From assembly GCA_017445475.1 (NCBI GenBank), contig JAFSUB010000013.1:1-64000 (forward strand): a stretch of DNA of 64,000 nucleotides, given 5' to 3'. The notes beneath the pieces are model-generated. The model saw only the letters and a list, made by a program, of their open reading frames with translations. It was not told the DNA's origin and ran no database searches. Shown here in pieces: positions 17,252 through 43,298 of the stretch; the first letter of the stretch is position 1, and each line of letters starts with the position of its first letter. Origin of the DNA: Alphaproteobacteria bacterium. Its GTDB lineage: Bacteria > Pseudomonadota > Alphaproteobacteria > RF32 > CAG-239. Position numbers and translations under genes: made by a program.

Positions 17252-18223
17252 TTAAGTAACTTCGGTAATGGCGCGCAGATTCCCCTCGCGGTTAATTTGC
17301 ACAACTTTGAGTTTTTTGCGCATCTCATTCATTGTTTTAACTTGGTCGATATGCGGGTTTGTGGCCATAATTCTGTCGATAAAAGCCTTAAACGCGGCTT
17401 CGGAACTTTCCGCGTGAATTGTTGCAAAAAAGTTGTCATGGCCTGTGCCCATCAGCTGCCAGATAGCGTCCGCATTTTTTGTTGAAAGCTCACCGCCGAT
17501 AATGGCGTCCGGCGTAAAGCGCACAACAAGATCGATAATGTCGGAATAGTTCATCTCGTTTGTCTGTCCCGTTCGCGACATCACAAGGTGAACACGGTTT
17601 TTATGCGGCACAATCAGCTCACGCGTATCTTCAATGGTAATCACGCGTTTATGGGGGTCCAAAATTTTAAGCAAATTGTTCAAAAAAGTCGTTTTACCGG
17701 TTGCCGTCGCACCGCTGATTAAAACGTGGTCGCCACGTTTGATGTATAAGAGTAGCCTTTCATAAGGATCATCTGGGTCTTTAAGGTCTTTTAACGGGTT
17801 AATTTTCAAAAGCGACTTTCCTTGCTCCAAACCATAATCTGCCAAACCGAAAGCAACTTCTTCACTGTGCACGCGGATTGTGAGAGCCACGCCGCCGGTT
17901 AAGTCATTTTCATCATACATCACATTTTGCCCCGCAATCGCCGAAAAACGATGTCCGCCCGGCAAATCCGTAAACACCAAAGGCGTTCCCTGCATCGGAT
18001 CAAACGGTTTTTCATAGGTGTTGGCAATAATATAAAGCAAGTCGGTCAAATATTCTTTTGAAAGTTTTTCATCTTCATACATAACCCACGGATAAGCTCT
18101 TTTGCCGCGAAGACGAAGCCAAACTTGCTTTTCACGGTCAATGGCAACTTCTTCGATATTGTCCTGATTATACCAATATGAGAGCGGCCTTAAAACAGAT
18201 TCCAAAACACGAAAAGAGCTCAT
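17252..18223 (-). CDS. virB11: VirB11-family secretion ATPase
   Basis: 323 aa from the ATG at 18223 (MSSFRVLESVLRPLSYW), preceded by AGGGGA; a longer frame upstream lies inside the virB10 gene and is not used. Cytoplasmic hexameric ATPase that drives substrate passage and pilus assembly. N-terminal domain about 1-140; Walker A GATATGKTT near residue 170; Asp box TIEDTRELI; Walker B region RFTPDAIIGGELS; His box ATIHAES. The GHDNFFATIHAES form resembles VirB11 of type IVA systems more than DotB. Starts 10 bp after the preceding virB10 stop. Confidence 0.93.
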   Translation of the reverse strand: MSSFRVLESVLRPLSYWYNQDNIEEVAIDREKQVWLRLRGKRAYPWVMYEDEKLSKEYLTDLLYIIANTYEKPFDPMQGTPLVFTDLPGGHRFSAIAGQNVMYDENDLTGGVALTIRVHSEEVAFGLADYGLEQGKSLLKINPLKDLKDPDDPYERLLLYIKRGDHVLISGATATGKTTFLNNLLKILDPHKRVITIEDTRELIVPHKNRVHLVMSRTGQTNEMNYSDIIDLVVRFTPDAIIGGELSTKNADAIWQLMGTGHDNFFATIHAESSEAAFKAFIDRIMATNPHIDQVKTMNEMRKKLKVVQINREGNLRAITEVT

Positions 18224-18233
18224 TTCATATCCC

Positions 18234-21200
18234 CTAAAAAAGTTGCCCCGTTGACGGATCAGGCGAAGAAGATGTTGAAGAAGATGAAGAAGACGCACCC
18301 GAACTTGTTGATGAAGGCGGCGGCGGAACAGCCCCCGGCGCTTTTGCCCGTCTTTGTCTTGCATAAGCACTATCATCAATTAAAGGACTCGAAGGCTCAA
18401 TTTTGTCATCTTTGCCGCTGTAAACAACCTGCGAGCCGCCGCCGGCCGCATCTGAAGCATTAGTCGTTCTACCGCGTTGGAGACTGCCAATCGGATCGCT
18501 ATCATCAATGAGCACTTCCGGCTTTTTGAGGCTCTCTTTAAGATGTGCTTTTTCTCTTTGAGCCGTGCGCAGCCACAAATCCACCTTCGGAAAGATAATC
18601 AATCGCGTTCCGGCCGGCACGTATGTAACCGAGTTAATCGCCATCTTGCGTTGAATCAAATCATTAAAGATATAATCCATCTGGTCTAAAAAGTTTTGCC
18701 GCGCCTGATTTGAAGCTGCTGCTTTTGAATCTTGAACCGTATTGCCATCCGAGCTGGTTGTTGTCTGGCCGCTTGCGGTCATATAAACCAAAGCGCTTGA
18801 CATCAAAGATGTTGCAATCGGCGCCGTATAGCGTTGTAGCAATTGCTCGTCCAAATAACCCAAAGCACCGCCGCGGCCCTGTGCGTCGCCCGTTTGTGCC
18901 GATGCAAATTCAAACGCCACACCATCAGGTCTGATAAGCCTTGTCCACGTAATGTCAACTCGAACCGCACTTCCCGACGAACTCGCGCCACCACCCGAAG
19001 AATATCCCATCACGCGACTTCCTGCCGGAATAACCACATTGCGTCCGTCTTCAGCATAAACATTTCTTTCCACAATTGCGGTTACCGGCACATTTGATGC
19101 GCCGCCGCTGTCCATAATCGTTCTGGCCAAAACCGCCGGAATCGGCTTGTCCGCCAAAATCATTTCGCTCATATCAACCCGCCACGACGACAATTTATAA
19201 TCCGCATTGTCCCAATTGTCCTGCCAGCCCGTAATGCTTGAAGGATTCACGCCGGAACTAATTCTTCCGACTTTAACCTCTTGCTGGCGCACATTTTGCG
19301 CTTCCGAAAGCAATCTTGCCCTCACGGGGTCATACCGCTCACCCGGACCAAAACCGCCTCCGGGGCCCAAATTTGACGGAACTTTCGATGTACCGTATGC
19401 ATCGGGCGGTAAAAAGATGGGCGAAGTTGCTCCGGCCGATTTTCTGCGCCCCTCAATAATGCCAACTCTTGTTCCGTCTTGTTCATCAATCGGTTCAATC
19501 GTGCCCAAAACATCACCGTTTTCATCTATGGCCAAACCATCTTCGCTGCGACCGATAATGCGGCCCGTTTTCGGATCAATCACATCTCCCGTTTCGAGCA
19601 AATCAGCCAAATAATCGCCGTTCGGAGAAACAACAACACCAATCACTTTTTCGGAATATGAAGGCAGTTTTTCTTTTGCCTCCGGAACAACGACAGGTTC
19701 AACCTGAATGCCCGTTCTTTCATCTTCCGGAATACCGGCCCAACCGGCTGATTTTTTGGCTGAGCGAACATAATATTGCAACGGTTTTGCTTGTCCCAAA
19801 AGTTTTCCGCTTTCATCTCGAAGCTCACCGCTGTTTGAAATTGTCCCCAAAACCTCACCGCTATTTCCGACAACCTCGCCCGAAAGCATCAGCTCACCGA
19901 CAGCGTTGTTTTGTTTGTCGCGCACAAAATAGTCGCGGGAGCCTCTGCCGATAAGCTGCCCGTCTTTTGAAACCAAGAAACCTCTGTCAGCTTTTCCAAG
20001 CCTTGAGCCCGAAAAACTCATCACTGTGCCGTTTTTCGTTAAATAACCGATAGCCTTTCCGTTTTCATCATAAACATACAAATCATAAAGCGCATAGCCG
20101 ATGATCTTGTTTTTGAAAAACAGCGCACCGTCGTTTGAAACGTTGCCGACCACCGCGCTTTTGTCGTCCAAAACCTCACCGCTTGCCATCACATAACCCA
20201 AGAAATTGTTATCTCTGTCAAAAGCAAATTTATATTTGAAAACCAAACCGAGGACTTTTTCATCATCACTCATCACGCCTCCGTCGGGCAAGGCATATCC
20301 CGCATCTTCGTTTTTGGGGGAAATGAGCCTATTTTTCAAATTAACACGCCCTAAAATTTTGTTTTCAAAGCTCATCACAGGATAAAGCTGAACCAAACCC
20401 GCTTTCAAAGCACCGTTTTCATCATAAACCCTTCCGTTTTGATTTAAGCACCCCTCAATGCCTTTTTGCGCGTTCAAAACCTGCCCGATTTCATTGGCCG
20501 TGCCCACAAAACGCCCGTTTGTGTCATAAACCGGCCCAAGCCACGCAATGTGGCCGACATTCTGCCCAACCTCGGATATTGCCTGCCTGTTTAGCAAAAC
20601 TTTGCCCAAAACGTTGTCGCGCCCGTTTCGAACTTCGCCCTTTAAGCCCACCACACCGAGCGGTTCGCAGTTTGCATTCACAACAGCCCCGAAACCGATG
20701 TTTTGGCCCAAAAATGCTCGGTTTGCGTTCAAAATAAGCTGACCTTCGCCCATTTTTCCAACATTTGCACCAACACTCAAAACATCGCCCGAAAAACTGA
20801 CATATCCCAACATTTCGCCCTTAACATTTAAGGCCACGCCACGCTCGTTTGAGGCTGTTCCGATAACATCATCTTTTTTGCCTTCAAGGGCAACAACATC
20901 ATATTCCGGAACAATTTTCGCAATCGGATTTTCTTTTTCGTCATAAAAAATGTTGGTTTGAGACAACACATCACTTTCACTGCCATCAAACAAAAAAGCA
21001 AATGCCGGATTAATCTGACGCGCCTTAATTTCGTTTTGCTCATCAATCACCAATCCGCTGTTTTCAATTTTCAGTGTCCGGCCGGTTTGCATATCAAGCT
21101 CTATATAGGCAAACAATTCGCCATTTTCATCGTATGACGGTGCCAAAGAAATGGTCTGTCCCGAAACCACGCCGTCAACATTATAAACATATCCCATCGG

Positions 21201-22445
21201 TGAAACTTTATATGTTTGAGCACCATGCACAAAATCCGAGCTGATTCCGGTCAGGCCTAAATTTTCCTGCTTTGTGTTCAACACAAATGCCGGTTTTAAA
21301 ACGCCACCCATCATCACGCCGGCCTCATTAAAGGCCACATCATTTTTCATAAAACCGAGCCTCGAACCTTCAAACGAAACAACATATCCGCTCGTTACGG
21401 CCTCGGCTTTGAGCCTTCCCAAATGGTCAAAAACAGGCCCTGTCGCCGCAATAAAGCCGATTGTTTTGCCCTTTTTATCAACCACAATGCCTCTCGGTCC
21501 GACAACGCCAACCTCACTTGTGCCCCTGACAATTTTGCCTTCAGGAACCAAATAACCGAGATACTGCCCTTTGTCATCAAGCGCAACACTCGAAAGCGGC
21601 AACGAAAAACCGATAACTTCCCCTTTTAAGGTTGAAACAAGACCGTCAGCTCTTAATTTTCCCACAATTTTTGACTTGCTGACAATTTCTCCGTTATAGC
21701 TCACAAGTCCCAAATAAGCACCCTGATTGTCAAACGCATATCCGCCTTTCAGCGCGCGGCCGATAATTTTTGAGCCGTTGTCATAAACATATCCGTTTGC
21801 ATGAACTTTGCCGATTGGCGCACCTTCAAAATTCGAAACCTGTCCGCCCGGGGCAACACTGCCGATAAACTGACCGGCAAGATCCACAACCATTTTTGCG
21901 GCAAGCAACCTGCCCTCAAGAACAACAGAGCCCTCTGCGCGCCGATAAGCATAACCCGACGGCGAAACAAACCCGATGTTGTTTCCGGCCAAATCAACAT
22001 ACGAACCGTTGCCCGCAACGCGACCAACTGCTTTGCCCGAATCATTATACACAATGCCCGAAGACAAAACGCTTCCGATAACTTCAAACGTGTCGTCAAC
22101 CACCAAACCGCTGGGCAAAATCTTTCCCGCAATGTTTCCCGAAGGCAACCGAACCGTGCCGTCGCCCAAAACCTTTCCCAAATATTTATAATCGTTTCCG
22201 AGGGCAAAACCCTGTGCAACAACGCCGCCGATAATGTCGCCTTTTGAATTTAAAACAAAACTGTCTGCCGTGAGTTGCCCGATAATCTCGTTTTTGAAAT
22301 TGATAACCGTTCCATCCGGAATCACTTTTCCGATGGGTTCACCGTTAAAATTTATCGCCGTAATATCTTGTGCGACGGCCATGCCGACATTGAAAACAAC
22401 AAGTCCCAAACATATTGCGATATATTTCATCATTTTTTGACACAT
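18234..22445 (-). CDS. VirB10-like protein, downstream part: giant periplasmic repeat protein with VirB10/TrbI domain
   Basis: 1403 aa from the ATG at 22445, set by AGGAGG ten bases upstream. It has its own cleavable signal peptide (about 1-26, ends GMAVAQ). Residues about 38-985 hold about 45 copies of a 17-residue repeat (consensus IGxVxxDGxVxDxxGxx). Residues about 1095-1295 are a clear VirB10/TrbI C-terminal domain: LADKPIPAVLARTIMDSG, VIPAGSRVMGY, WTRLIRPDG, and an antenna-like hydrophobic stretch around TSLMSSALVYMT. The tail is Ser/Pro-rich. Expected role: outer-membrane part of the secretion core channel. Lacks the inner-membrane anchor of normal VirB10 (about 380-480 aa), which the adjacent gene supplies. 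Confidence 0.88.
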   Translation of the reverse strand: MCQKMMKYIAICLGLVVFNVGMAVAQDITAINFNGEPIGKVIPDGTVINFKNEIIGQLTADSFVLNSKGDIIGGVVAQGFALGNDYKYLGKVLGDGTVRLPSGNIAGKILPSGLVVDDTFEVIGSVLSSGIVYNDSGKAVGRVAGNGSYVDLAGNNIGFVSPSGYAYRRAEGSVVLEGRLLAAKMVVDLAGQFIGSVAPGGQVSNFEGAPIGKVHANGYVYDNGSKIIGRALKGGYAFDNQGAYLGLVSYNGEIVSKSKIVGKLRADGLVSTLKGEVIGFSLPLSSVALDDKGQYLGYLVPEGKIVRGTSEVGVVGPRGIVVDKKGKTIGFIAATGPVFDHLGRLKAEAVTSGYVVSFEGSRLGFMKNDVAFNEAGVMMGGVLKPAFVLNTKQENLGLTGISSDFVHGAQTYKVSPMGYVYNVDGVVSGQTISLAPSYDENGELFAYIELDMQTGRTLKIENSGLVIDEQNEIKARQINPAFAFLFDGSESDVLSQTNIFYDEKENPIAKIVPEYDVVALEGKKDDVIGTASNERGVALNVKGEMLGYVSFSGDVLSVGANVGKMGEGQLILNANRAFLGQNIGFGAVVNANCEPLGVVGLKGEVRNGRDNVLGKVLLNRQAISEVGQNVGHIAWLGPVYDTNGRFVGTANEIGQVLNAQKGIEGCLNQNGRVYDENGALKAGLVQLYPVMSFENKILGRVNLKNRLISPKNEDAGYALPDGGVMSDDEKVLGLVFKYKFAFDRDNNFLGYVMASGEVLDDKSAVVGNVSNDGALFFKNKIIGYALYDLYVYDENGKAIGYLTKNGTVMSFSGSRLGKADRGFLVSKDGQLIGRGSRDYFVRDKQNNAVGELMLSGEVVGNSGEVLGTISNSGELRDESGKLLGQAKPLQYYVRSAKKSAGWAGIPEDERTGIQVEPVVVPEAKEKLPSYSEKVIGVVVSPNGDYLADLLETGDVIDPKTGRIIGRSEDGLAIDENGDVLGTIEPIDEQDGTRVGIIEGRRKSAGATSPIFLPPDAYGTSKVPSNLGPGGGFGPGERYDPVRARLLSEAQNVRQQEVKVGRISSGVNPSSITGWQDNWDNADYKLSSWRVDMSEMILADKPIPAVLARTIMDSGGASNVPVTAIVERNVYAEDGRNVVIPAGSRVMGYSSGGGASSSGSAVRVDITWTRLIRPDGVAFEFASAQTGDAQGRGGALGYLDEQLLQRYTAPIATSLMSSALVYMTASGQTTTSSDGNTVQDSKAAASNQARQNFLDQMDYIFNDLIQRKMAINSVTYVPAGTRLIIFPKVDLWLRTAQREKAHLKESLKKPEVLIDDSDPIGSLQRGRTTNASDAAGGGSQVVYSGKDDKIEPSSPLIDDSAYARQRRAKAPGAVPPPPSSTSSGASSSSSSTSSSPDPSTGQLF
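19490..22335 (-). repeat. 51-bp periodic coding repeat array in the downstream VirB10 part
   Basis: About 45 diverged copies of a 17-codon unit, read on the minus strand, most starting IG, VG or LG and carrying a central xxGxVxD. DNA identity between copies is low, so the array is old and selected at protein level. Some units carry insertions of 10-50 residues. Confidence 0.85.
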
Positions 22446-22449
22446 CGTT

Positions 22450-25400
22450 TTAGTTCCTCCGATTCTGCGCGACTTCTTGCAGAGCGTAACCCGCAACATT
22501 TTTATCATTATCTACAAACGAGCCGTTGCTTTTCAAATGGCCGATATAGTCCCCTTTGGCATTTTTCACGCGGCCGTCATAGGTTAAATAGCCCAGATAT
22601 TTTCCTTCAACGGACAGAACGGCCGTTCCGAGCTTAAATGTTTTGCCCAAAACATCGTTTTGGTTGTCAATCGCCAAACCGCCCGAAAGCACCCGACCGA
22701 TTTTTTTGTTGTCGCTTGAACGCAATGTGCCGTCAAACGCCACAAAACCGACAACCTGATCATCTGCGCCAATCACAATGTCGCCGCTGACAACCTCACC
22801 GACCAAACGCCCCTGATTGCTTAAAACTTTACCGTCCTGATAAACACGCCCGATAAGTGCGTTTTTCTTGCCCATAACCGTGCCGTCAGGCAAAACAAAA
22901 CCGATGGGTTCGCCGTTAAAATTCACCACAACGCCTTTTTTCAGAAGGCCTAAATTCCGGTCTGTCATACCCCCCGGCAAAACGGCCGAAACAATTTTGC
23001 CCGAAACGTCCGAAACTTCGCCTTTTGCATTCACAAAACCGCTGTATGCCCCAAACAAATCAATCATAACCTCTTCCGGCACAACTTCGCCTTTGACAAC
23101 ACCGTTAAGGTCTTTAATCAGCCCTTCGCCCGTTTCATAACCGACAACGTTGCCCCTTACATCTAAAACCCGACCTTCGGCATTAACATATCCCAAATAC
23201 GACCCGTCATATCCGATGGCCGGTCCCTGTTTCACAACACCGCCGGCATAGTTGTTGTCCAAATCAAACCATCGTCCTGCGCTGTCCGTTTTGCCCAAAA
23301 TTTCGCCGAACTTATTCACGATGCGGCCGTCAAAATTTACAAAACCTTTTGCTTCGCCCTGTTCATCAACAACCACAGCCAAAGGCAAAAAGCGCCCGAG
23401 CGTTTCATTATAAAAACTCAAACCCTCACCGTGTATTTTATCAACGGCCACCCCGTTGTCGCTATAAATATAACCGTCGGCAAACAGATGTCCCAAAACA
23501 TTTCCTTCCGATGTCATCACAACATTTCTTTGCGGCAACACAACGCCGATAATTTTGTTTTGCCTGTCCGCCAAATAGTGATGAAGCAAAATTTTCGCAC
23601 CTGTATATTTTTCCAAGCTCAATGTGCCGTCATTTGAAACATTGCCAAGCAGATTTCCATTCAAATCGAAAGCATAATAAAGCTCGTTGATTCTGCCGAT
23701 GTAATTTCCTCTCAAAGAGTAAACATCACCGTAAAAATCGGTGCAGCCCACTTTTGAAAGCGCATTTGAAGCAACATCACCGCTCTCGACAAGCATACCG
23801 ATTGTCTGGCCCGAAGCATCTATTGCAACTCTATAGCGCGCAACGCGGCCGACAACATTCCCGCTGTCGTTTAACACACGTCCGTCCGGATTAACGCAGC
23901 CCACATATTTTTGCCGTTCATTATACACAAGCCCCGCGTCATCAACAAAACCGATTTCCTGACACGCATCATTAAGCACCTTGCCTTTTTGCACAACCGC
24001 ACCCAAAAACAAACCTTTGTCGTCATATATGCTGCCATCGGGATAAATGCGATATTTTCTGTCTTGATGAAGGCTTGAAACAATACCTTTTTTATCTAAA
24101 ATTCCGACATTTGCACATCCCCAACCGACAACCGTTCCGCCTTCAATGCCCTGACCGATGATTTTTGAACCACCGGCCTGCTTGATTAACCGGTTTGGCA
24201 AAATACGCCCCAAAACCTTTCCCTTGTCGTCAACAACATCACCTGTCGGCGCAATTTCACCCAAAATCACACCGGTCGGCGAAACGGCAATCAAATCCGT
24301 ATCCACAACCGAGCCGAGCTTAACCCACGCCTCAACCAAGAGTTGGCCGTCTTCGCTTAAATGTCCGACAATTTTACCGTTTGCATCAACAATTTCATTT
24401 TTATCATTCAAATAACCGATAACACGCCCATCATCGCCGAAAATCACGTTTGTTTCATCGCCGGCACGACCGATAACGTTTCCATTGGCATCAACAAGCG
24501 TTCCATCTTCAAGCATTTTACCAATTTGATTGCCGTCAAAATCCATCACATTGCCGTTTTCATCGACATATCCCAAAAGATGCCCGCTTTCGTCATAGGC
24601 CATTTTCAACTTTTTAACATTAGAACTCGTTGCTCTGCCAATAACCTTTCCTTTGCTGTCAACAACCGTTCCGTCAGCAAGAACTCTGCCGATAACCTTA
24701 CCGTTTGCATCAATCACGTTACCGTTTGCGTCAACCATGCCGATGATGTTGCCGTCTTTGTCATAAGCAATCCCCTGCTCGCCGACAAGTGCGCCGACAA
24801 CTTTTTGCTTTAGAGCAAACAAATCGCCGTTTGCATCAAGCTTTCCGATGATGTTGCCGTTTTCATCAATCACCGAGCTGTCCGGCAAAACAACACCAAG
24901 CGCTCGTCCGTTTTCATCAATCACCGTCTTGCCCGTTTGGCTCACGTGCCCGATAACTTTTCCTTCCAAATCGACAACCTCGCCGTTTTGATTGAGCCGC
25001 CCGATAACATTTCCGTCATCATCAACCACCGTTCCATCATCCAAAACCCTGCCGATAATCTCGCCCTCATCATTAAAAACATAGCCCGCTTGAACCGCTC
25101 TGCCGACAATTTCGCCGCGTTCGTTAATTATCGTGCCGTCGGCAAGTTGCCTGCCGATAACGTTTCCGTCCAAATCAAACGCCACCCCGTTTGCCGCAAC
25201 ATAGCCCACAACCTTGCCGTTTTCATCAAACACAAGCTTTTTGTTGCCTGCCACACCGATGATGTTGCCGTCATTGTCAATCACCAAACCATCGCCGTTG
25301 ATACGGCCGATCACGCGGCCGGCCTCATTATAAACCAACCCGTCTTCGCCCACATAGCCAATCGGACTGCCTGTCGGTCCGTATGCAATTTGGCGCTTTG

Positions 25401-26052: not shown

Positions 26053-26063
26053 CAATATCCTTC

Positions 26064-28447: not shown

Positions 28448-28457
28448 CAAATTTTCC

Positions 28458-33719: not shown

Positions 33720-34955
33720 TTAGTTTCCAATCCCCGCTTTTTTCACATCATCTTCGGTCAGCACATAATCATCCATATTAATTTCGGCCGGATTTTTTTC
33801 GGGGTTTTGAACCCTGAAATCGCGATTTTGCATATAGCGTGATGTTTTAAGTCTTTGCTTGGCAGCTTCCAGCTTGATTTCTTCGGTTAAAAGCTCCAAT
33901 TCCTGAACGCGCTGCTGATTTTGAAGTGCCAGTGCCGTAATTTCATAATCAACCGCTTCAATATTGTTCACCAAATCATCTTTTTTCTGGTCAAGAGCCG
34001 CCATTTTTTGGCGCACACCGATAAGCTGAACCAAAGCATTTGCCATATCTTTTTTCACATTTTCGCGGCGCTCGTTTTGAATGCGATCAACCGCCTCTTG
34101 GTTCATCGGCTCGTCAGGCAAAATGTAATTTTTGGCAATACCTTCCTCATAAGCGGCCTTCTTGTCTTCGGGCGATTTTTTAACCATACCTTTCACAATA
34201 TCGGCGGCAAGTCCTTTGGCCGACGTTTCAAGCACCGATTTTGCCGCGTCGTATTTTTGCTGTGTTTCCCGCTTTTGCGCCAAAAGCGCCTGATATTGCT
34301 CGTCTGAATCCAAATACGAATTGCCTTCCTCGCCCATTGTGTTTAGAGCTTTTTCATATTCTCCTTTTAGGGCTGTCGTCTCAGCCAGTTGTTTGGCAAT
34401 TGAAGCTTTGGTATCTTCATGTTCTTCCGCATCATACAATTCTTTTAAGATTTTCTCGTTTTTTTGGGCATCTTCTAAACGTGCATTCAATTCTTTGGAG
34501 GCGGCAACCCTGCGTGCCTCAAGGTTTGCATCAATCTCATCAAGCTGTTTTTTCAAGCTCACACTTGAAACGGCTTGCGAATTTTTCAGTTTTTCCATCT
34601 GCTGTTCGTATGTTTCCGTGCCTTGCGTATAAAGCGAATGCGCATCATCATAAACACCTTTTGCGCCTTCATAAAGTTCTTTTCCTGTGTTGATATCTTT
34701 TTGAATGCGTTGTTTTAAGGCCTGCGCCTTTTCATAGGTTGTTTTCAAACTTTGCCCGATTTTACTTTCCGTAACTTTTTTGGCAGCGGCATTCACACGT
34801 TTAAGGGTTTGTTCAACAAACGTTTCAACGGCACCCAGCGTGCGTGCACCTGCCGCATCGCCGTCAGCTTTAAGCTGTGCCTGCAAAGGAGGGCAAAACA
34901 AACACACCGCGAGGGCAGCCGCAACAAACAAAATCTTCTTATTTTTCACTGTCAT
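33720..34955 (-). CDS. Exported coiled-coil protein of the secretion locus
   Basis: 411 aa. Signal peptide about 1-26 (ends LQAQ), then almost continuous helix and coiled coil. The stretch TGKELYEGAKGVYDDAHSLY resembles a matching stretch in the 242-aa neighbour (NKGKQIYSSAKEK), so the two share a module. The start overlaps the end of the 242-aa gene by 17 bp, implying translational coupling. Probably periplasmic. A distant VirB5 relationship is possible but not shown. Confidence 0.65.
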   Translation of the reverse strand: MTVKNKKILFVAAALAVCLFCPPLQAQLKADGDAAGARTLGAVETFVEQTLKRVNAAAKKVTESKIGQSLKTTYEKAQALKQRIQKDINTGKELYEGAKGVYDDAHSLYTQGTETYEQQMEKLKNSQAVSSVSLKKQLDEIDANLEARRVAASKELNARLEDAQKNEKILKELYDAEEHEDTKASIAKQLAETTALKGEYEKALNTMGEEGNSYLDSDEQYQALLAQKRETQQKYDAAKSVLETSAKGLAADIVKGMVKKSPEDKKAAYEEGIAKNYILPDEPMNQEAVDRIQNERRENVKKDMANALVQLIGVRQKMAALDQKKDDLVNNIEAVDYEITALALQNQQRVQELELLTEEIKLEAAKQRLKTSRYMQNRDFRVQNPEKNPAEINMDDYVLTEDDVKKAGIGN

Positions 34956-35667
34956 ACCCCCCCTCTAAATTATGAATGCCCATCATATGATCAAAGCCTG
35001 CCATTGATGCTTTCATTTCTATAATTTTCAGATTTCTCTTCATCGAGCGCAACGACGCTTTCTGCGACAAATCTATTGCCTCATCAATGCTTTCGACATT
35101 CACAAGCTCGTCTTCTTCACCACGAATATTTTGCCTTAAAACCATTGTTTTAGAAAACAAAGCCGACATATCTTCCGCATTTTGTTTGTTTAAGGCATAA
35201 CTTAAAGCCATCTGGTTTGCAATCGAATCAGCACCTTTTTTACGCACCATCACATCAACAACAGCGTCTGCGGCCTCATTGTCCGACATTTTGCCGTCAA
35301 ATTTGCCTTTAAGGGGTGAAAGCACCGTATAGCCCAAACCTTCCAAATCTCTTTCATGAACGGCCGTAATGGTTGCCTCAACCCCACCTTTAATTGCCCT
35401 TGCCTTTTCTTTTGCGCTTGAATAAATCTGTTTGCCCTTATTATAGGTCGATTTGGCATCATCAACATATTTCTTGGCTTGTTTGGCGCGCTGCTCAATC
35501 GTTTGCTTTAATGATTGTGCCTTTGCAATTTTTTCTTTATAGCCCTGAACATTATCCAAAACTGTCGTCAAAACAGCTTGCAACGCCTCAATATCGGCAC
35601 GCGCGGGAGGGCTGAACATCAAACCCGCCGCAACCAAAACCGCACATAACACACTTCGTTTTGCCAT
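34939..35667 (-). CDS. Exported coiled-coil protein of the secretion locus, VirB5-like size
   Basis: 242 aa from the ATG at 35667 (MAKRSVLCAVLV); a longer frame would start inside the previous gene. Signal peptide ends PARA. The mature part has the size and helical make-up of VirB5 minor pilins (about 200 aa): N-terminal helix DIEALQAVLTTVLDNVQGYK, coiled coil, and a C-terminal helical region ending in a GGYDSEK tail. Five bp after the previous gene's stop and overlapping the next by 17 bp. Confidence 0.65.
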   Translation of the reverse strand: MAKRSVLCAVLVAAGLMFSPPARADIEALQAVLTTVLDNVQGYKEKIAKAQSLKQTIEQRAKQAKKYVDDAKSTYNKGKQIYSSAKEKARAIKGGVEATITAVHERDLEGLGYTVLSPLKGKFDGKMSDNEAADAVVDVMVRKKGADSIANQMALSYALNKQNAEDMSALFSKTMVLRQNIRGEEDELVNVESIDEAIDLSQKASLRSMKRNLKIIEMKASMAGFDHMMGIHNLEGGYDSEK

Positions 35668-35671
35668 CGTC

Positions 35672-37060
35672 TCACTCTTTTGCCTGATCTTTAAGCCCGT
35701 ATGTTGACGCAAATTCTTCTATGCTGCGCAAAACCTCTTTTTCCAAAAGCGCCGCGTTCACAAGAAGATTTTGCTTTAAAAGTTCTATGTTTGCCGCACC
35801 GACCTCACCGTTGCCGGACATCTGCGTTCTGGCATTATCACCGGCCTTGTCCAAAATATTTTGCATATTTTCCGAAACTTCTGAATCTGCCGCAGCACTT
35901 CTCGCCTTTTTGGCCTGAACAAAACTGTTTGCCGATTCTTCTTTTTGCACCTCGCCAAATCTGTCTTTAAACTGCTTTGCCACAACGGCGTCCGACTCAT
36001 TCATATTGCTGACGATGGTGTCAATACACGCCGTTGCCTTGTCCTGATCAATTTCATCGTCAAAATTAAACCCGCACCAGTTCGCAAGCGTGTCCGAAAA
36101 TATATAGTTGCCTTCATCGTCCGTTCCCGTTTTGGTGTTTATCTCGAAAGCAAAACTTTGCGTTTCATACCATTTAAACGAAACCTTTTCAAAAGCCTTC
36201 CTTACGCTCTGCTCTTCGGGTTCTTCTTCATCACCTTTTAAGGTATCTTCGCCCATCTCATCTACCGACGCGTTTTCTTTATCTGAGTCATCAACAGCCT
36301 GCCACAAATCATCAATGTTTTTTTCATCAAGCATCCCTTCATCAATCAGATACGTTTGGCTTGACACGCCTTCGCCGTCTTCCGCCGATTCTTTTTTTAT
36401 CTTTACGGTTTGCACATCGTCAGTTTTCTGCAAACCTTCCGTTGTCTGTGCCTCATCTTGCGCCGCCGAAAAACCTCTGCTTAAAGCACCCTGATTGCTC
36501 ACTTGCTCGGCGGTGGTGTTCACACTTTGAGTCGAGCCATAATTTCTCGTCGCACTTTGTGTGCCGTCGGTATATGCATTGATGCGCTCTTCAAGCGCTT
36601 CGGCCTGATTTGCAACAGATGTTGCCGCTTGAGAAGCCGTATTTACATAGCCCTCCACCTTCTTTTTTGTGAAATCAATTTGCGTTTTTGTTTTTTGATA
36701 TTCTTCCATCGCGCTGTCAAATTTTTTCTTGGCATTTTCATAATCGGCCTTAAGTTTTTTCAATTTTTCAACACGCGCGGCAATTCTTTCGGCTTTTTCT
36801 TTTTGCTTTTCAAGCTCTTTTGCCTGATCTTTAATTTTTGAAAGTCCGCCTAAATTATCACCGATGGCTTGCAAAATGTTTGATGTTGAATATGTCTCCT
36901 GCACGGTTGAAACCTGTGCTTCAATCTGCGAAATACCCGTCATAATGGTGTTGGCAATTTCCGTAATATCAAAAGACGGCCACACAAACGCCTGCGCGGG
37001 CAAAGCAAACCCCAAGCCCAAAACAGCGCCGCCAAAAATCTTTACATATTCTTTTTTCAT
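35672..37060 (-). CDS. VirB5-like exported coiled-coil protein
   Basis: 462 aa from the ATG at 37060, which follows GGAGG. Signal peptide about 1-23 (ends AQAF). The mature N-terminus VWPSFDITEIANTIMTGISQ, then IEAQVSTVQETYSTSN, is the pattern of VirB5-family N-termini (short Pro/Asp start, helix, then a long coiled coil with Lys/Glu repeats). An acidic region (about 225-300) and a C-terminal helical domain make it about twice the normal length. Positioned right after virB4, the usual virB5 place. VirB5 caps pili and contacts targets. Confidence 0.7.
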   Translation of the reverse strand: MKKEYVKIFGGAVLGLGFALPAQAFVWPSFDITEIANTIMTGISQIEAQVSTVQETYSTSNILQAIGDNLGGLSKIKDQAKELEKQKEKAERIAARVEKLKKLKADYENAKKKFDSAMEEYQKTKTQIDFTKKKVEGYVNTASQAATSVANQAEALEERINAYTDGTQSATRNYGSTQSVNTTAEQVSNQGALSRGFSAAQDEAQTTEGLQKTDDVQTVKIKKESAEDGEGVSSQTYLIDEGMLDEKNIDDLWQAVDDSDKENASVDEMGEDTLKGDEEEPEEQSVRKAFEKVSFKWYETQSFAFEINTKTGTDDEGNYIFSDTLANWCGFNFDDEIDQDKATACIDTIVSNMNESDAVVAKQFKDRFGEVQKEESANSFVQAKKARSAAADSEVSENMQNILDKAGDNARTQMSGNGEVGAANIELLKQNLLVNAALLEKEVLRSIEEFASTYGLKDQAKE

Positions 37061-37139: not shown

Positions 37140-39572
37140 CTATGCAATATTTAAATATTTTGTAACAAAGTTCTCCTCGCCATATTCTTTGATTAAACTT
37201 TCCACCAGCAAAACGTTGTTTCTTCCCGAATTATAAAGCTTCAAATAAGGCCCGAGCGCCCCGAGGTTCACATCTAAAATCACCGATTCGCCCGTCGGGG
37301 GACGCGAAAGCAAAATCGCATATTCAAAATCGCGATACGTTTTACCGAGAATAAAATCAAGTTCCGTCTGCGTCAAATTCCAAGTTGCATAATCTTCGGG
37401 CATGGCTTGCGGATTTCTGAAAAACAAAACAGTCTGGCACTGTCCTCTGATGGCTTCGCCAACCCCCAATTTATCAATAATATTCGGTTGTTGAAACGCG
37501 CAAAGATAGGCCTGCCTTTTTTTACGTCCTTCTTGCAAACCCTGCACAAAATAATCTTTAAACATCGGGTGTTTAAGCATCGGCGCCGTTTCATCAATCA
37601 TAATCAGCGACGGCACACCTGTCTCGCCTGTCTCGCTTTGAATTCTGTGCATCACATAACTAATCACGGCCGGCGCCAGTGTTTCATCTTCAAAAATATG
37701 CGTAAAGTCAAACGCCATAAACCGTTTTGACTTCAAATCAAGACTGTCGGTATCGGCATTAAAGATTTTGCCGTATTGGTCCGGATTAACCCACCGATAC
37801 ATTTCGCGGCGCATATTGCCTGTCGGCGAAAAACAGCTTTTATATAAATTTTTCATCACACGCTCTTCGGGGCGCAGATAATCAAAAGCGGTTGTTACGG
37901 CGCGCGCGACTTCACGTTCCGAAAGGGCATCATCTGTCAATGTAATCGCCTTCATCCAGCGCCTTAAAAAGGCGCGATTGTTCGGTGTATCCGACGCATC
38001 AAACGGATTTAAGGAAACATTTTTGTTGTCGCCGTCAAAACCCACATACGCCCCGCCGATGGCACGTGTGAAGATTTCCGCACCTCTGTGGCGGTCAAAG
38101 AAGAACACTTTTAAGTCTTTATGGCGCATTGCCTGACCTGCCAAAAAGGTAAGCAACGTTGTTTTACCTTTTCCGGTCGGACCGATAATGCAACAGTGCG
38201 CCACAGCGCCTTCTTCAGGTGAAACGTGAAACTGAAACTGATATGCCGAACCCGACATTGTCCGAAACGTTGTGATGGCGCCGTTTCCCCAGTCTGATTT
38301 TGAAAAACCCTCCGAGGGCTTATCAAACGAAACGGCCAAAGCCACAATACGCGACAAATAGCGATATGTTCTGGGATATGTGTCATACGTCGGAAATTGG
38401 CCGAAAAACGTTGCCTGCGTCACCCACCCCTCGCGCACGGGCGTAACCGAAAACGAGCGGCATATACGCTGCACTTCGCTTTCGCCGAAGTTAATTTCTT
38501 CTTTTGTTTCACCTTTAACAATAATGCTCATGGCATATTCGGTTAAGGCCTGATAATCTGCATCACTGTCCTCAATCGCAGACAAAGCGGCGCTATATTG
38601 ATCGACAACGCCGGAAGAAAAGCTTGTCATCATCGCCATTCTCTGTTGTTGCATCAACATCAAACGCGCCTGAGGCCTGAAAATCGGGCGAATATTGTGC
38701 AGCAACACAAGCTCGCAATCAATCGATAAGAGCGACACAACCATACTTTCGTCCATATAATCGCCGGTTGTCCTAACACCCATCACAATTTCATACAAAT
38801 CCTTATCACCCGAGAAAAAGTGAATAATACCTTTTTCTTTTGTAAAGTGGATATGGTCGGCCGAAAGCATTTCGTTAAGTTCGGTATTTTGTGCTTTGCG
38901 CACTTTCGGTTCGGGCTTCGAAACCGGACTGCAAAGGCGTGAAAAAACATAAAACGGACTGTCGGTTGCCGCGCTGTCCGCATTTTCATACATCTGAAAA
39001 ACGCCATATTCCCCAAGCGTTGCAATCAGCGATTGGCAGGCATAATTCAAATCTTTCAAGGCATCTTTTCGGTCAATCACGGTCAACACAACGTAGTGCG
39101 TGTTCACATAAACGCGATCCATACTTTGCGCCCAAACCTCATTAACCTTTTCCAAAATCTCATTATTAAAATCGCCCTCATCGGCTTTTCTCTTAACGCG
39201 TTCGCGCAGCGTAATAACCCTGCACACAATCGAAAGCTCCGACAGATTGTCAATCGTTGCCTTTCGCGCCTCCATCATCGAATAGGCCTTTTCCGGCGTC
39301 ACGGCAGCCAAATCCAAGCCGGAAATGCGAAAAACGCGTGCATACGTCCCATTGGCACATTTAATGGTAATACCGTCCTCCATCAGGCTCGCAAAAGGCA
39401 AAAAGTCCGACACGCGTGATTCTCTGGGGGAAGGCAAAACCCAATTTCCGAAGCGTGTTGCAAGCAAAACGGCAAAAGCTGCCGCCGAGATCATACCGAT
39501 AATGGCAAGCATCACCTCAACGCTTGTCAAACCTTCCACAAAAACAGATGTAAAATCGAAACTAGGGTTCAA
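37140..39572 (-). CDS. virB4: VirB4/TrbE-family secretion ATPase
   Basis: 810 aa, the family norm. Two hydrophobic N-terminal segments (about 17-48), the VirB4 N-terminal domain with FRISGLDLAAV, and the C-terminal motor: Walker A GPTGKGKTTLL near residue 463, Walker B SLIMIDETAPML near 657, and a QxxR-like QGLQEGRKKRQAY stretch. Drives assembly and substrate transfer at the inner membrane. The start is TTG (39570-39572), eight bases after GAGG and overlapping the virB3 stop by 11 bp; the first in-frame ATG would remove the first membrane segment. Confidence 0.95.
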   Translation of the reverse strand: MNPSFDFTSVFVEGLTSVEVMLAIIGMISAAAFAVLLATRFGNWVLPSPRESRVSDFLPFASLMEDGITIKCANGTYARVFRISGLDLAAVTPEKAYSMMEARKATIDNLSELSIVCRVITLRERVKRKADEGDFNNEILEKVNEVWAQSMDRVYVNTHYVVLTVIDRKDALKDLNYACQSLIATLGEYGVFQMYENADSAATDSPFYVFSRLCSPVSKPEPKVRKAQNTELNEMLSADHIHFTKEKGIIHFFSGDKDLYEIVMGVRTTGDYMDESMVVSLLSIDCELVLLHNIRPIFRPQARLMLMQQQRMAMMTSFSSGVVDQYSAALSAIEDSDADYQALTEYAMSIIVKGETKEEINFGESEVQRICRSFSVTPVREGWVTQATFFGQFPTYDTYPRTYRYLSRIVALAVSFDKPSEGFSKSDWGNGAITTFRTMSGSAYQFQFHVSPEEGAVAHCCIIGPTGKGKTTLLTFLAGQAMRHKDLKVFFFDRHRGAEIFTRAIGGAYVGFDGDNKNVSLNPFDASDTPNNRAFLRRWMKAITLTDDALSEREVARAVTTAFDYLRPEERVMKNLYKSCFSPTGNMRREMYRWVNPDQYGKIFNADTDSLDLKSKRFMAFDFTHIFEDETLAPAVISYVMHRIQSETGETGVPSLIMIDETAPMLKHPMFKDYFVQGLQEGRKKRQAYLCAFQQPNIIDKLGVGEAIRGQCQTVLFFRNPQAMPEDYATWNLTQTELDFILGKTYRDFEYAILLSRPPTGESVILDVNLGALGPYLKLYNSGRNNVLLVESLIKEYGEENFVTKYLNIA

Positions 39573-39852
39573 ATTTGTTTCCTCTCTCTTGATATAAGTT
39601 TTTTGAAACTTTGTTGGTTTGCCCGAACGCCTGAATCATTGTTGAAAGATGCGGCTCTTTAACACCCGCGGCAACAATGGCCACGTGCACCAAAATAATG
39701 GTCGTCACAAAAAACAGCGGGTTCACGTTAGCCACCCCGACCGCCATAAACATCATCGGCACTTGCACCCCAAAGTTAATGGCCGTCGGCAACACCGGCC
39801 CCCAAAAAAGCTTCGGAGGCTGCGCCACTGCTTTTAAAATCATATCCCTCAT
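39562..39852 (-). CDS. virB3: VirB3-like inner-membrane protein
   Basis: 96 aa. The N-terminal AVAQPPKLFWGPVLPTAIN stretch matches the TRPxxFxGVP region of VirB3/TrbD, followed by two membrane helices (about 25-42 and 46-65) and a polar C-terminus. VirB3 partners VirB4, and here the two genes overlap. Length is normal. Confidence 0.82.
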   Translation of the reverse strand: MRDMILKAVAQPPKLFWGPVLPTAINFGVQVPMMFMAVGVANVNPLFFVTTIILVHVAIVAAGVKEPHLSTMIQAFGQTNKVSKNLYQERGNKFEP

Positions 39853-39912: not shown

Positions 39913-41256
39913 TTATTTTTTCTTGCCAAACAACCCTTTAATTTTACCAAACATATTTTGAAACGTATGCACGGAAGAATCAATATTTTGCCCCAAATTA
40001 TGCGCCGTATTTCCGACATTTGCACCCCTATCAACAGAGGCACCGACACCCGAAACCTTTTGTTGCTGATTGCGGAATATTTGATTCCAAGTATTCATCA
40101 AAGCCGTTGTTGCGTTTGCGCCTTGTTTGTTGTTTTCATAATCAACCGACCAATCTTTTGCCGTATCACCCACATTTTGTGACACACCGATAAAACCGCC
40201 GACAATTGAGTTGACATCATGCGTAACCGAGCCTGTCACACCATATGTATTGTGCGTCAAATTTGCTATGTGTTTCACTTTATCCAAAAACGTCATATCG
40301 GAACCGGCAATTGATTGGGCTTGTCCGAAGGCTGCCGCACTGTCAGTTAAAACTGAAACGGCAGCCACACCGGCATTACCGATATTTTGCGTTGCTGCAA
40401 CCGCATTAGCGGCTGTCCGATACAAATCAGTAACAACCTGCTTGGTCGTTTTGCCGCACGTTCCGTCCGACTTCACCTTGCCTTGGCAAACTTCTTTTTC
40501 AACCCGAACACCACCGTTTTGATCAACCGTGCACACATTGCGCACACCATCTTTCCAAGCACTTTTTGACGATGTGGAATTTGTATCGCAACCGGCCAGT
40601 TGCATTGCCGACCAATCCCTGAAACTCACTTCTTTATCGCCAACTTTCACTGTATCGGTCAACTTCAAATCATGAGCATTAATATCGTTTATCGTCTCAT
40701 CCAGCGCTTTTTGTGATTCATAATCTGCCTCTGCTTCCACCTGTTTGAGCCATGCGTTCATTTCCTCGTCGCTCATCTGGCTCGGATCGTCGGGTGTTCC
40801 TCCTTTATAATTATCTGTACCGCTTGTAATTTCGTCGCTTCCGGTTCCCTGAACCTGATAGGTGTGTGAATTCGGATCATATTTATACGACTTCTGCGCA
40901 TTAATAAACGTGCCGTAAACAACATCGCGCTGCTCTTTTGTATCCCAATCCGAATCGCCGCTGAAATATTCAATAAACGGAAACATCAGCGCCAAGAGCG
41001 AAAGCCCGATCATAATATAGCCCAAATGTTTATAGCTGATTTTGTTAAAAACGGCCAAAACCGCAAACATCACGAGCCCGAATCCGGCAATCACATAAAC
41101 AATCTGCCGCAAATCTTGCAGTGTTGTAATCAGTTTTCCCTGAATGGTTGTGAACAAATCTTTATCATCTGCCGCAAACGCCAGCGCCGGCATCATCACA
41201 TAGCAAAAAGCTGCCAAACACAGGCTTATACTCAAAATCTTAAAAAATTTTTTCAT
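39913..41256 (-). CDS. VirB2-like protein with a long C-terminal extension
   Basis: 447 aa; ATG after AAGGAGG. A signal peptide (1-28, ends AFAA) and two closely spaced transmembrane helices (about 45-66 and 71-92, IVYVIAGFGLVMFAVLAVF and LGYIMIGLSLLALMF) reproduce the VirB2/TrbC pilin layout of the three genes upstream, including a short basic turn between helices. A 350-residue hydrophilic, Asn/Thr/Ser-rich extension follows, with a Cys cluster (about 230-272), a Gly/Ala-rich stretch and a basic tail GLFGKKK. Possibly a pilus base or tip variant or a protein exposed by the pilus (inference). Not VirB6, which has more helices. Confidence 0.68.
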   Translation of the reverse strand: MKKFFKILSISLCLAAFCYVMMPALAFAADDKDLFTTIQGKLITTLQDLRQIVYVIAGFGLVMFAVLAVFNKISYKHLGYIMIGLSLLALMFPFIEYFSGDSDWDTKEQRDVVYGTFINAQKSYKYDPNSHTYQVQGTGSDEITSGTDNYKGGTPDDPSQMSDEEMNAWLKQVEAEADYESQKALDETINDINAHDLKLTDTVKVGDKEVSFRDWSAMQLAGCDTNSTSSKSAWKDGVRNVCTVDQNGGVRVEKEVCQGKVKSDGTCGKTTKQVVTDLYRTAANAVAATQNIGNAGVAAVSVLTDSAAAFGQAQSIAGSDMTFLDKVKHIANLTHNTYGVTGSVTHDVNSIVGGFIGVSQNVGDTAKDWSVDYENNKQGANATTALMNTWNQIFRNQQQKVSGVGASVDRGANVGNTAHNLGQNIDSSVHTFQNMFGKIKGLFGKKK

Positions 41257-41274: not shown

Positions 41275-41637
41275 CTAACCATCAGTTTTAAGCGTGTCCG
41301 TAATGCCTTTCACACTTGTATCCGCACCCGTTCCGATTGTCAAATAACTCACAAGCGCACCGGTTGCCGCAATCACCACCACGCCGATAATAATTGCCGC
41401 AAGCCACTTCCAGTTCAACCCGCCGAAAAGCGCACCGATGGCAACGGCGATAATACCGAAACCGGCCGCCGCAAAAATAATCTTGCGCATACCGGTAAAA
41501 ATCGTTGCACCGGTTGAGGTCAATCCCTCAAAAACTTCGGCATGAGAAACCGTTGCACATAAAATCGAAGAAACCGCAAAGACAAAAAGCCCTTCCAGCA
41601 TTATTTTTTTAAGTTTCTTAAAATTTATATCCAACAT
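41275..41637 (-). CDS. VirB2-like pilin, divergent copy
   Basis: 120 aa; the start at 41637 follows AGGAAAAACGG. Signal peptide ending SHA, then the VirB2 core of two hydrophobic helices (IIFAAAGFGIIAVAIGALF and LAAIIIGVVVIAATGALVSY) joined by GGLNWKW. The short polar C-terminus ends KTDG. Shares the helix-KW-helix plan with the two pilins upstream but is far less similar to them than they are to each other. 18 bp before the extended VirB2-like gene. Confidence 0.82.
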   Translation of the reverse strand: MLDINFKKLKKIMLEGLFVFAVSSILCATVSHAEVFEGLTSTGATIFTGMRKIIFAAAGFGIIAVAIGALFGGLNWKWLAAIIIGVVVIAATGALVSYLTIGTGADTSVKGITDTLKTDG

Positions 41638-41983: not shown

Positions 41984-42376
41984 TTAATTGGTAATATCCG
42001 GATTGTAATCTCCGCCCGTTCCTGTCTCTCTGAACGTATCGTTATAATTTTTACTTGTAACATCACTACCCGTTGCATATTCAATCACGGCACCGGCAGC
42101 GGCTAAAACACCAAGTCCGACGGCAAGTGCACCAAACCAAGGCCATTTCACTTTGCCGAAAATAGCTTGCACGGCCAAACCGACCAAACCGAAACCGCCG
42201 ACAACGAACACAATCGTTCTGACAGATCTGAAAACGTTACCCGCTTTTCTAATTGCCGCACCGACAATCGTTCCGCCGGTCAAATCTGACTGTGCGAAGG
42301 CATCACCTGTCATGGCAACCATCAAAACAAGCGCCAAGCCAAGCAATGTCCAAAAATTGTTTTTGAAGATTTTCAT
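41984..42376 (-). CDS. virB2: VirB2-like pilin, tandem copy A
   Basis: 130 aa from the ATG at 42376 (AAAGGAG upstream); a longer in-frame start lacks a site. Signal peptide ends DAFAQ. The mature pilin has an amphipathic N-terminus, helix IVFVVGGFGLVGLAVQAIF, basic turn GKVKWPW, helix GALAVGLGVLAAAGAVIEYA, and a polar tail ending DYNPDITN. This is the VirB2/TrbC layout. About 90% identical to copy B. It has its own upstream region and 3' hairpin, so it is probably transcribed on its own at high level. Confidence 0.87.
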   Translation of the reverse strand: MKIFKNNFWTLLGLALVLMVAMTGDAFAQSDLTGGTIVGAAIRKAGNVFRSVRTIVFVVGGFGLVGLAVQAIFGKVKWPWFGALAVGLGVLAAAGAVIEYATGSDVTSKNYNDTFRETGTGGDYNPDITN

Positions 42377-42414
42377 AGTCCTTTCTCCTTTAATGAATGA
42401 AAATTCTTTATACA

Positions 42415-42420
42415 ATTATA
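42415..42420 (-). promoter_or_regulatory. Candidate -10 element for pilin copy A
   Basis: TATAAT on the minus strand, 39 bases upstream of the start codon and conserved in copy B (43340-43345). No good -35 hexamer is visible at the normal distance, so the call is weak. Confidence 0.35.
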
Positions 42421-42861: not shown

Positions 42862-42895
42862 TCAAGGGAAAGCCCGCAAGCGAGCCTTCCCTTGA
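42862..42895 (-). other. 3' stem-loop after pilin copy B
   Basis: Same sequence and position as 41943-41976, 7 bases past the stop codon of copy B. Confidence 0.65.
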
Positions 42896-42902
42896 AATAA
42901 AA

Positions 42903-43298
42903 TTAATTGGTAATATCCGGATTGTAATCTCTACCGGTTCCTGTCTCCCTAAATGTATCTTGATAATTTTGAGATGTAACATTACTACCTGTTGCGTATT
43001 CAATCACGGCACCGGCAGCGGCCAAAACACCAAGTCCGACAGCAAGCGCACCGAACCAAGGCCATTTCACCTTACCGAAAATGGCTTGCACGGCCAAACC
43101 GACCAAACCGAAACCGCCGATAACAAACACAATCGTTCTGACTGATTTGAAGACGTTGCCCGCTTTTAGAATTGCCGCACCGACAACCGTTCCGCCGGTC
43201 AATCCGCCGCTCTGTGCGAAGACATCACCTGTCATGGCAACCATCAAAACAAGCGCCAAGCCAAGCAATGTCCAAAAATTGTTTTTAAAAAGTTTCAT
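42903..43298 (-). CDS. virB2: VirB2-like pilin, tandem copy B
   Basis: 131 aa from the ATG at 43298, which follows AAGGAGG. Signal peptide ends DVFAQ; two helices flank the GKVKWPW turn exactly as in copy A. Differences from copy A cluster at the mature N-terminus (SGGLTGGTVV against SDLTGGTIV) and in the polar tail, the parts most likely exposed on a pilus; both helices are nearly unchanged. This is the first gene of the secretion locus in transcription order. Confidence 0.87.
   Translation of the reverse strand: MKLFKNNFWTLLGLALVLMVAMTGDVFAQSGGLTGGTVVGAAILKAGNVFKSVRTIVFVIGGFGLVGLAVQAIFGKVKWPWFGALAVGLGVLAAAGAVIEYATGSNVTSQNYQDTFRETGTGRDYNPDITN

What the first reader, a model, noticed from the sequence alone, without database searches (positions are those of the whole stretch)
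17252..43298. A modified type IVA secretion locus without mobilisation genes, embedded in core chromosome
The order pilins-B3-B4-B5-like-...-B8-B7-B8-B9-B10-B11 follows virB2-virB11. No relaxase, VirD4, VirB1, recognisable VirB6, partitioning, replication or integrase gene lies in the window. The left border is an rppH operon with overlapping 3' ends and the right border a tRNA-Leu gene. A fixed chromosomal apparatus for protein secretion, DNA uptake or cell contact therefore looks more likely than a conjugative element. VirB6 and VirD4 may be elsewhere, as in Rickettsiales.
Basis: partly seen in the sequence, partly recalled or inferred. Interest (0 to 1): 0.75.

Follow-up and report, generated by a model that had tools for sequence, protein, structure and literature searches.

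The report
Fixed gut-bacterium secretion machine, split core
Almost every member of a family of tiny-genome gut and rumen bacteria carries, as a permanent part of its chromosome, a probable protein-injection machine descended from DNA-transfer machinery, whose central channel protein has been stretched with long repeats and cut into two genes.

Summary
In detail: window 17252-43298 is a minus-strand pilin-B3-B4-[4 secreted genes]-B8-B7-B8-B9-VirB10-B11 operon. VirD4 is on contig C19 with partner genes; five tandem VirB6 are on C26, one with an M23 peptidase domain that may replace VirB1. A type IVb pilus operon (C12 here) adjoins the T4SS in most relatives. VirB4 is single-copy in 29 of 33 family genomes; three relaxase families are absent from own. 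The rppH/tRNA-Leu neighbours are not conserved, and no empty site was seen. Closest named relatives are MobA/MobL-linked loci on alphaproteobacterial plasmids (VirB4 34-39%); the Rickettsiales-like layout looks convergent. They are separate in 8 of 8 family loci, one giant ORF in another family. Most likely it delivers proteins into contacted cells; substrates and targets are unknown. New variant of a known kind.

The parts
17252..18223 (-). VirB11 ATPase (start by alignment with relatives; ORF opens at 18379)
   Evidence: PF00437 1.2e-19; start; 77-80% identity in 6 relatives
18234..22508 (-). VirB10 outer-membrane half: signal peptide (probable start 22433), about 1000 aa of 17-residue beta repeats, TrbI barrel
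   Evidence: PF03743 6.1e-30, PF21785 6.2e-41; solved ComB10/TrwE/VirB10/CagY matches; conserved mature N-terminus after a signal-peptide-like stretch in 7 relatives
22450..26055 (-). VirB10 inner-membrane half: cytosolic N-terminus, one TM, Ig-like domain, about 1000 aa of beta repeats (ATG at 26052)
   Evidence: PF21785 1.9e-72, PF15780 0.0076; hhalign to plasmid VirB10 N-half 87.8%, reversed control 4.0%; fused with the other half in G054
26064..27692 (-). VirB9
   Evidence: PF03524 1.6e-13
27707..28450 (-). VirB8 copy b
   Evidence: PF04335 1.3e-21
28458..28637 (-). VirB7 lipoprotein, 59 aa, LGAC lipobox, NELKLSPCAC motif
   Evidence: ORF and coordinates; same NxLKxxPCAC motif in the plasmid VirB7 (sequence read); plasmid VirB7 hits the same position in G033 and G054
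28789..29541 (-). VirB8 copy a
   Evidence: PF04335 4.5e-16; paralogue of copy b 5.9e-32
29551..33708 (-). 1385-aa protein with signal peptide, unknown, fast-evolving
   Evidence: position conserved; 26-32% identity in 6 relatives
33720..34955 (-). VirB5-like helical secreted protein 3
   Evidence: hhalign to plasmid VirB5 91% over C-terminal region; helical model, no solved match with E<=0.001
34939..35712 (-). VirB5-like helical secreted protein 2
   Evidence: hhalign 81-94% to the N-termini of its two neighbours' families, but only 8% to plasmid VirB5
35672..37090 (-). VirB5-like helical secreted protein 1
   Evidence: hhalign to plasmid VirB5 92% over C-terminal region
37140..39572 (-). 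VirB4 ATPase
   Evidence: TIGR00929 6.7e-107; tree
39562..39852 (-). VirB3
   Evidence: phmmer to plasmid VirB3 2.5e-6
39913..41256 (-). VirB2-like pilin with about 350-aa C-terminal extension
   Evidence: PF04956 2.9e-5, just under cut-off
41275..41637 (-). VirB2 pilin
   Evidence: PF04956 6.5e-9
41984..42415 (-). VirB2 pilin
   Evidence: PF04956 3.7e-7
42903..43298 (-). VirB2 pilin, near-copy of the preceding
   Evidence: PF04956 3e-7; sequences

Best explanation
A chromosomally fixed, vertically inherited VirB/D4-type (T4A) secretion system of a family of small-genome gut/rumen Alphaproteobacteria, derived from a plasmid-type conjugation system that lost its relaxase. Shown by sequence: the main operon here, five VirB6 on C26, VirD4 with four neighbouring genes on C19. 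Inferred working: VirD4 with its two-TM partners selects protein substrates; VirB4/B11 power an inner-membrane complex built with several VirB6; the M23 domain of one VirB6 opens peptidoglycan in place of VirB1. The VirB7/B9/VirB10-C ring sits in the outer membrane and is joined to the inner membrane by a separate VirB10-N chain, both lengthened by beta repeats into a long stalk. VirB2 and diverse VirB5-like tips, helped by the type IVb pilus encoded next door in relatives, contact another cell and proteins are delivered. The target (rumen ciliates, gut epithelium or other bacteria) is not known.
For: Fixation and co-inheritance: VirB4 29/33 and VirB6 33/33 family genomes, orthologous VirD4 45/49; VirB4 tree follows family and order. 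No relaxase of three families in own; 0/20, 0/20 and 1/20 (sub-cut-off) order members. VirD4 kept, with the 477-aa partner beside it in the own genome and 6 of 6 relatives inspected. M23 motifs complete in 10 of 10 VirB6a proteins. VirB10 split: Ig-like domain homology, separate ORFs in 8/8 family loci, one ORF in G054. Identity gradient: VirB4 and VirB11 74-83%, VirB3/B8/B9/VirB10 halves 39-77%, secreted proteins 22-32% across 6 relatives, as expected if the tip meets variable targets. Pilus operon adjacent in 16 of 18 loci.
Against: No effector was identified or sought. VirD4 was not found in three near-complete family genomes (G015, G066, G077), one of which (G015) has VirB4. MOBH, MOBC, MOBV relaxases and oriT were not searched. 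VirB5 identity rests on coiled-coil-rich profiles. Long-stalk geometry rests on repeats whose model has pTM 0.33.
Confidence: 0.62

Rival explanations
1. A bacteria-killing system working like the Xanthomonas X-T4SS, with periplasm-acting effectors and immunity proteins, aimed at rival gut bacteria.
For: Chromosomal, relaxase-free, VirD4 kept; dense bacterial habitat; PMC6536674 passages expect further such systems.
Against: VirB7 is 59 aa with no room for the N0 domain used to define X-T4SS; no effector-immunity pair recognised among ORFs listed in the window.
Confidence: 0.2
2. A still-conjugative system that mobilises DNA using a relaxase encoded elsewhere or of an untested family.
For: Closest named relatives are MobA/MobL-linked loci on plasmids; VirD4 is related to theirs.
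Against: No PF03432/PF03389/PF08751 in own or almost all order members; VirD4 and VirB6 dispersed; fixed single copy; no integrase or partition gene recognised in the window.
Confidence: 0.09
3. A DNA-uptake (ComB-like) system.
For: TrbI part best matches ComB10 among NCBIfam models and solved structures.
Against: As recalled, ComB works without VirD4, whereas an orthologous VirD4 is in 45 of 49 genomes here; pilins and VirB5-like proteins are elaborated.
Confidence: 0.05
4. An adhesion organelle: pilus and tip proteins attach to cells or particles, and little is translocated.
For: Four VirB2-like and three VirB5-like genes, type IVb pilus next door in relatives.
Against: All three ATPases and a coupling protein with a conserved partner are kept.
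Confidence: 0.04

Closest known systems
MobA/MobL-linked T4SS loci on plasmids of Microvirga sp. VF16, Sphingosinicella sp. BN140058, Erythrobacter aureus (L100, L101, L099)
   Same: Closest named VirB4 (34-39%; next hits about 27% or less); same order B2-B3-B4-[VirB5-like]-B8-B9-B10-B11-D4, with a VirB7 read in L099; VirB10 with TM, Ig-like domain and TrbI barrel
   Different: They have a relaxase gene, VirD4 in line, one VirB8, ordinary 529-590-aa VirB10 in the two read (L099, L100), and our VirB6e finds no match in the plasmid set
rvh T4SS of Rickettsiales
   Same: Dispersed islets, five VirB6, duplicated VirB8 (PMC2653234 passages)
   Different: Single VirB4 and VirB9; VirB4 on a different branch from the rvh-like locus L148; repeat-laden split VirB10; VirB5-like genes present
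Helicobacter pylori Cag system (CagY)
   Same: VirB10 homologue enlarged by a long repeat region (title and abstract starts in search listing)
   Different: CagY repeats are alpha-helical and in one chain; here beta repeats in two chains
Dot/Icm-type systems, e.g. the Dot/Icm-like plasmid locus of Teredinibacter purpureus
   Same: Giant TrbI/VirB10-type protein (2131 aa)
   Different: Not the same gene set; that protein does not match the beta-flower models
Type IVb (R64 thin / toxin-coregulated type) pilus
   Same: TcpQ, secretin and PilO matches in the relatives' operon, plus ATPase, GspF-like and prepilin-like genes (last three names by eye)
   Different: Here it is a neighbour or partner of the T4SS, not part of it

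Membership tests
VirB/D4-type (P-type, T4A) secretion system | VirB2, B3, B4, B7-B11 present | tested here: met
VirB/D4-type (P-type, T4A) secretion system | VirB6 and VirD4 present in the genome | tested here: met
   C26 five VirB6-like (best over cut-off, 3.5e-6), C19 VirD4 1.5e-41
VirB/D4-type (P-type, T4A) secretion system | VirB1 transglycosylase | tested here: inconclusive
   none among the locus ORFs scanned; no genome-wide search made; M23 domain on VirB6a may replace it
VirB/D4-type (P-type, T4A) secretion system | VirB5 | tested here: inconclusive
   two of three profiles match plasmid VirB5 C-terminus at 91-92%, one at 8%; model gives no solved match with E<=0.001
Conjugative element | relaxase | tested here: not met
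   PF03432, PF03389, PF08751 absent from own; other MOB families not tested
Conjugative element | oriT | not tested
   no oriT search made
rvh (Rickettsiales) | five tandem VirB6 | tested here: met
   L080 5742-14657, all related to one another
rvh (Rickettsiales) | duplicated VirB4 and VirB9 | tested here: not met
   one VirB4 in own; one VirB9 in the locus; a second VirB9 elsewhere was not searched for
rvh (Rickettsiales) | common descent of VirB4 | tested here: not met
   tree, 48 rows: putative rvh L148 groups with other plasmids, not with this clade; identity of L148 as rvh is inferred from its layout
X-T4SS (bacteria-killing) | VirB7 with N0 domain | tested here: not met
   VirB7 is 59 aa; criterion from PMC6536674 passages
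X-T4SS (bacteria-killing) | effectors with XVIPCD | not tested
ComB DNA uptake | no VirD4 (recalled) | tested here: not met
   orthologous VirD4 in 45 of 49
Beta-flower repeat family (PF21785) | Pfam score over cut-off | tested here: met
   240.7 and 139.2 bits against 38
Beta-flower repeat family (PF21785) | closed five-petal barrel | tested here: inconclusive
   all-beta hairpins, pLDDT 66.6, pTM 0.33; nearest solved matches are RHS repeats with low TM

The most novel reading that the evidence does not exclude
A T4SS whose VirB10 has been cut into an inner-membrane chain and an outer-membrane chain, each carrying long runs of 17-residue beta hairpins, so that envelope-spanning coupling is made by two stacked repeat tubes instead of one continuous polypeptide, with a VirB6-borne M23 enzyme cutting the wall and a type IVb pilus pulling target cells in: a new architecture for energy transmission and reach in type IV secretion.
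Probability: 0.35. Interest if true: 0.78.

Novelty: new variant of a known kind. Interest (0 to 1): 0.62.

Why it matters
[quoted passage not shown] A family in which that chain is cut, both halves kept and each lengthened, makes the question whether continuity is needed directly testable. The family is found in many mammalian gut and rumen assemblies, so a permanent, probably protein-injecting machine there, of unknown target, bears on rumen and gut ecology. It is also a case of a conjugation-type system turned into a fixed machine outside Rickettsiales, with a convergent layout.

Tried and rejected
Rejected: an empty rppH-tRNA-Leu site (none seen; fragmented assemblies limit this). Rejected: shared descent with rvh as the reason for five VirB6 (VirB4 tree). 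Rejected: the two VirB10 genes as a frameshift or assembly error (separate in 8 of 8 family loci, conserved mature N-terminus of the second). Rejected: the Teredinibacter giant VirB10 as the same repeat family. Led nowhere: structure of the third VirB5-like protein (pTM 0.36, no solved match with E<=0.001); solved structures similar to the 1201-aa protein; repeat counting by a home-made profile (empty seed). The C25 TrbL hit is a lone 702-aa ORF and was not counted as VirB6. Papers: searches showed no description of this system in the open-licence library (listings only, plus the passages cited).

Weak points of my own calls: the window row was empty, and the window-neighbour queries (rppH, nagZ and others) were empty, because a script picked an alignment row as the window; both were redone. 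One search failed for the same reason. In one search I used 13 of the 28 loci, those with a regular four-gene arrangement (and no duplicates), and left out the others.
Full report
What is there. The window lies in a 1.33-Mb, 99.6%-complete genome in 27 contigs. Relatives found by VirB4 are mostly gut and rumen Alphaproteobacteria assemblies, by their titles; the GTDB order name RF32 comes to mind but is recalled and untested. On the minus strand from 43298 down to 17252 run four VirB2-like pilins, VirB3, VirB4, four secreted genes, VirB8, VirB7, VirB8, VirB9, a 1201-aa repeat protein, a 1424-aa TrbI protein and VirB11. Composition is like the flanks. Codon use follows the minus-strand neighbours (r=0.967) more closely than plus- and minus-strand neighbours follow each other (0.905); a random-split test does separate T4SS genes from neighbours (0 of 500 splits reach the observed difference). 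Two of 26 neighbour genes were dropped from that test because the coordinates I gave were out of frame. Composition thus gives no sign of recent arrival, but it is not proof.

The missing parts. VirD4 is on contig C19 (1.5e-41), followed by 477-, 178-, 740- and 320-aa genes with no informative Pfam match; the first two share a two-TM N-terminus (phmmer 6.9e-8; sequences). The virD4-477 pair stands together in the own genome and in 6 of 6 relatives inspected, and in G023 the 178-aa, 320-aa and rluD neighbours too. VirB6 is on C26: five adjacent membrane proteins of 1250, 440, 293, 437 and 540 aa, related to one another. The first has an M23 peptidase domain (1.5e-15) with complete HxxxD and HxH motifs in 10 of 10 genomes examined and in G023. 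In six relatives (G016, G020, G021, G023, G030, G054) the VirB6 array lies on the VirB4 contig; for G016, G020, G021, G023 and G054, where the VirB11 side was also read, it is about 6-10 kb beyond VirB11. In G016, G021 and G023 the gap holds a TM protein, a secretin-like lipoprotein, two further genes and an XRE-type regulator (names by eye); the own VirB6 array keeps the regulator.

Type IVb pilus. In 16 of 18 loci with enough upstream DNA (VirB4 identity at least 71%) a pilus operon with TcpQ and secretin, mostly also PilO and the ATPase, starts just beyond the T4SS pilins, facing away. The own genome keeps this operon on C12. So the likely ancestral block was VirB6 array, T4SS, pilus, and this genome has it in pieces. 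Whether the last break is real or an assembly error I cannot tell.

Fixation. VirB4: 29 of 33 family genomes, one copy each. VirB6a relatives: 33 of 33, one of them (G010) weak. Orthologous VirD4: 45 of 49; missing from G015, G066 and G077 although these are 98-100% complete, and from G024, which has only the divergent type. Gene order is the same in the eight loci read through (seven family members and G054) and in what could be read of G033 (in G027 the stretch ends before VirB11). rppH, ctpA, nagZ, xth and the two ORFs next to the locus turned up in 0 of 53 fetched locus stretches, and in 27 loci scanned no tRNA-Leu was found. rppH and nagZ share a contig in 0 of 16 other family genomes that have both.

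Relaxases. PF03432, PF03389 and PF08751 are absent from own; among 20 order members the only hit is one below cut-off (G009, PF03432). Three MOB families and oriT remain unsearched.

Descent. In the plasmid set the best VirB4 matches are 39, 35 and 34% (Microvirga, Sphingosinicella, Erythrobacter), then at most 27%. Those three loci are compact and carry MobA/MobL. In a 48-row VirB4 tree the window falls in a 26-row clade (99/100) of alphaproteobacterial genome-assembly systems from many families, the own family being a clean subclade (100/100); the join to the Microvirga plasmid is weak (83/70) and long branches are flagged. A locus with the rvh-like layout (L148, VirB4 followed by three TM-rich ORFs) falls with other plasmids. 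Across the class 64 of 289 genomes have a VirB4 match at 1e-20.

The split VirB10. VirB10 in the Erythrobacter and Microvirga plasmids is one 529-590-aa chain: TM, Ig-like domain, linker, TrbI barrel. Here the 1201-aa gene has a TM and an Ig-like domain that matches theirs (hhalign 87.8%, E 3.3e-6; reversed control 4.0%), and the 1424-aa gene has a signal peptide and the TrbI barrel. In the window and seven relatives they are two ORFs, and the second begins after its signal-like stretch with a conserved motif close to EITAIDFNGDLIGKVIPDG. In G054, another family, they are one ORF of at least 2822 aa with TM, Ig-like part, 18 Bflower_2 stretches and TrbI. Since ordinary VirB10 is one chain, fission in this family is the simpler history; G033 could not be read that far. 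The first half varies from 1137 to 2419 aa.

The repeats. Self-similarity peaks at 17 residues and multiples. Pfam calls them five-fold beta-flower (1.9e-72 and 6.2e-41), a fold described in passages I read of PMC10584680. NCBIfam sees YD repeats weakly. A model of residues 195-560 of the first half is all beta hairpins, pLDDT 66.6, pTM 0.33, made with other window repeat segments as its alignment; nearest solved matches are RHS repeats with low TM. Stacked flowers or an RHS-like ribbon are both open.

Tip proteins. Four secreted genes stand between VirB4 and VirB8 in the 13 loci used for profiles. Two of the three smaller ones match plasmid VirB5 in the C-terminal region (91-92%), the third only 8%, though it resembles its neighbours. 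Identity across six relatives falls from 74-83% (VirB4, VirB11) through 39-77% (VirB3, B8, B9, VirB10 halves) to 22-32% (secreted parts); the lowest values are near the noise of global alignment.

Function. Keeping VirD4, VirB4 and VirB11 in a fixed single copy while lacking known relaxases points to protein delivery. Rumen work read in passages reports undefined Alphaproteobacteria enriched with ciliates (PMC6217230) and discusses secretion systems in ciliate survival (PMC6079354), which makes protists a plausible target, no more. X-T4SS membership fails on VirB7; killing of bacteria by other effectors is not excluded.

Noticed in passing
22 of 49 family genomes (not own), e.g. L097 9172-11517 (G023): A second, divergent VirD4-like protein (about 30% identity, about 780 aa); in G023 next to a pentapeptide-repeat-like gene. 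VirB4 stays single-copy in the family.
   Followed up: partly
L157 11967-18362: Teredinibacter purpureus megaplasmid carries a Dot/Icm-like locus with a 2131-aa TrbI/VirB10 protein.
   Followed up: partly
L061 5475-12734 and L057 10532-15241: The VirB10 inner half is 2419 aa in G027 and 1569 aa in G021, so repeat number varies within the family.
   Followed up: partly
window 16396-17157: 253-aa helical-repeat-like ORF overlapping rppH by 4 bases; not found beside the T4SS in relatives.
   Followed up: partly
window 41984-42415 and 42903-43298: Two nearly identical VirB2 pilin genes separated by about 0.5 kb, which looks like a recent duplication.
   Followed up: no
window 10703-11545: 280-aa ORF that looks by eye like a Bro-N/DinD type protein between uvrB and gpmI (name recalled, not tested).
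   Followed up: no
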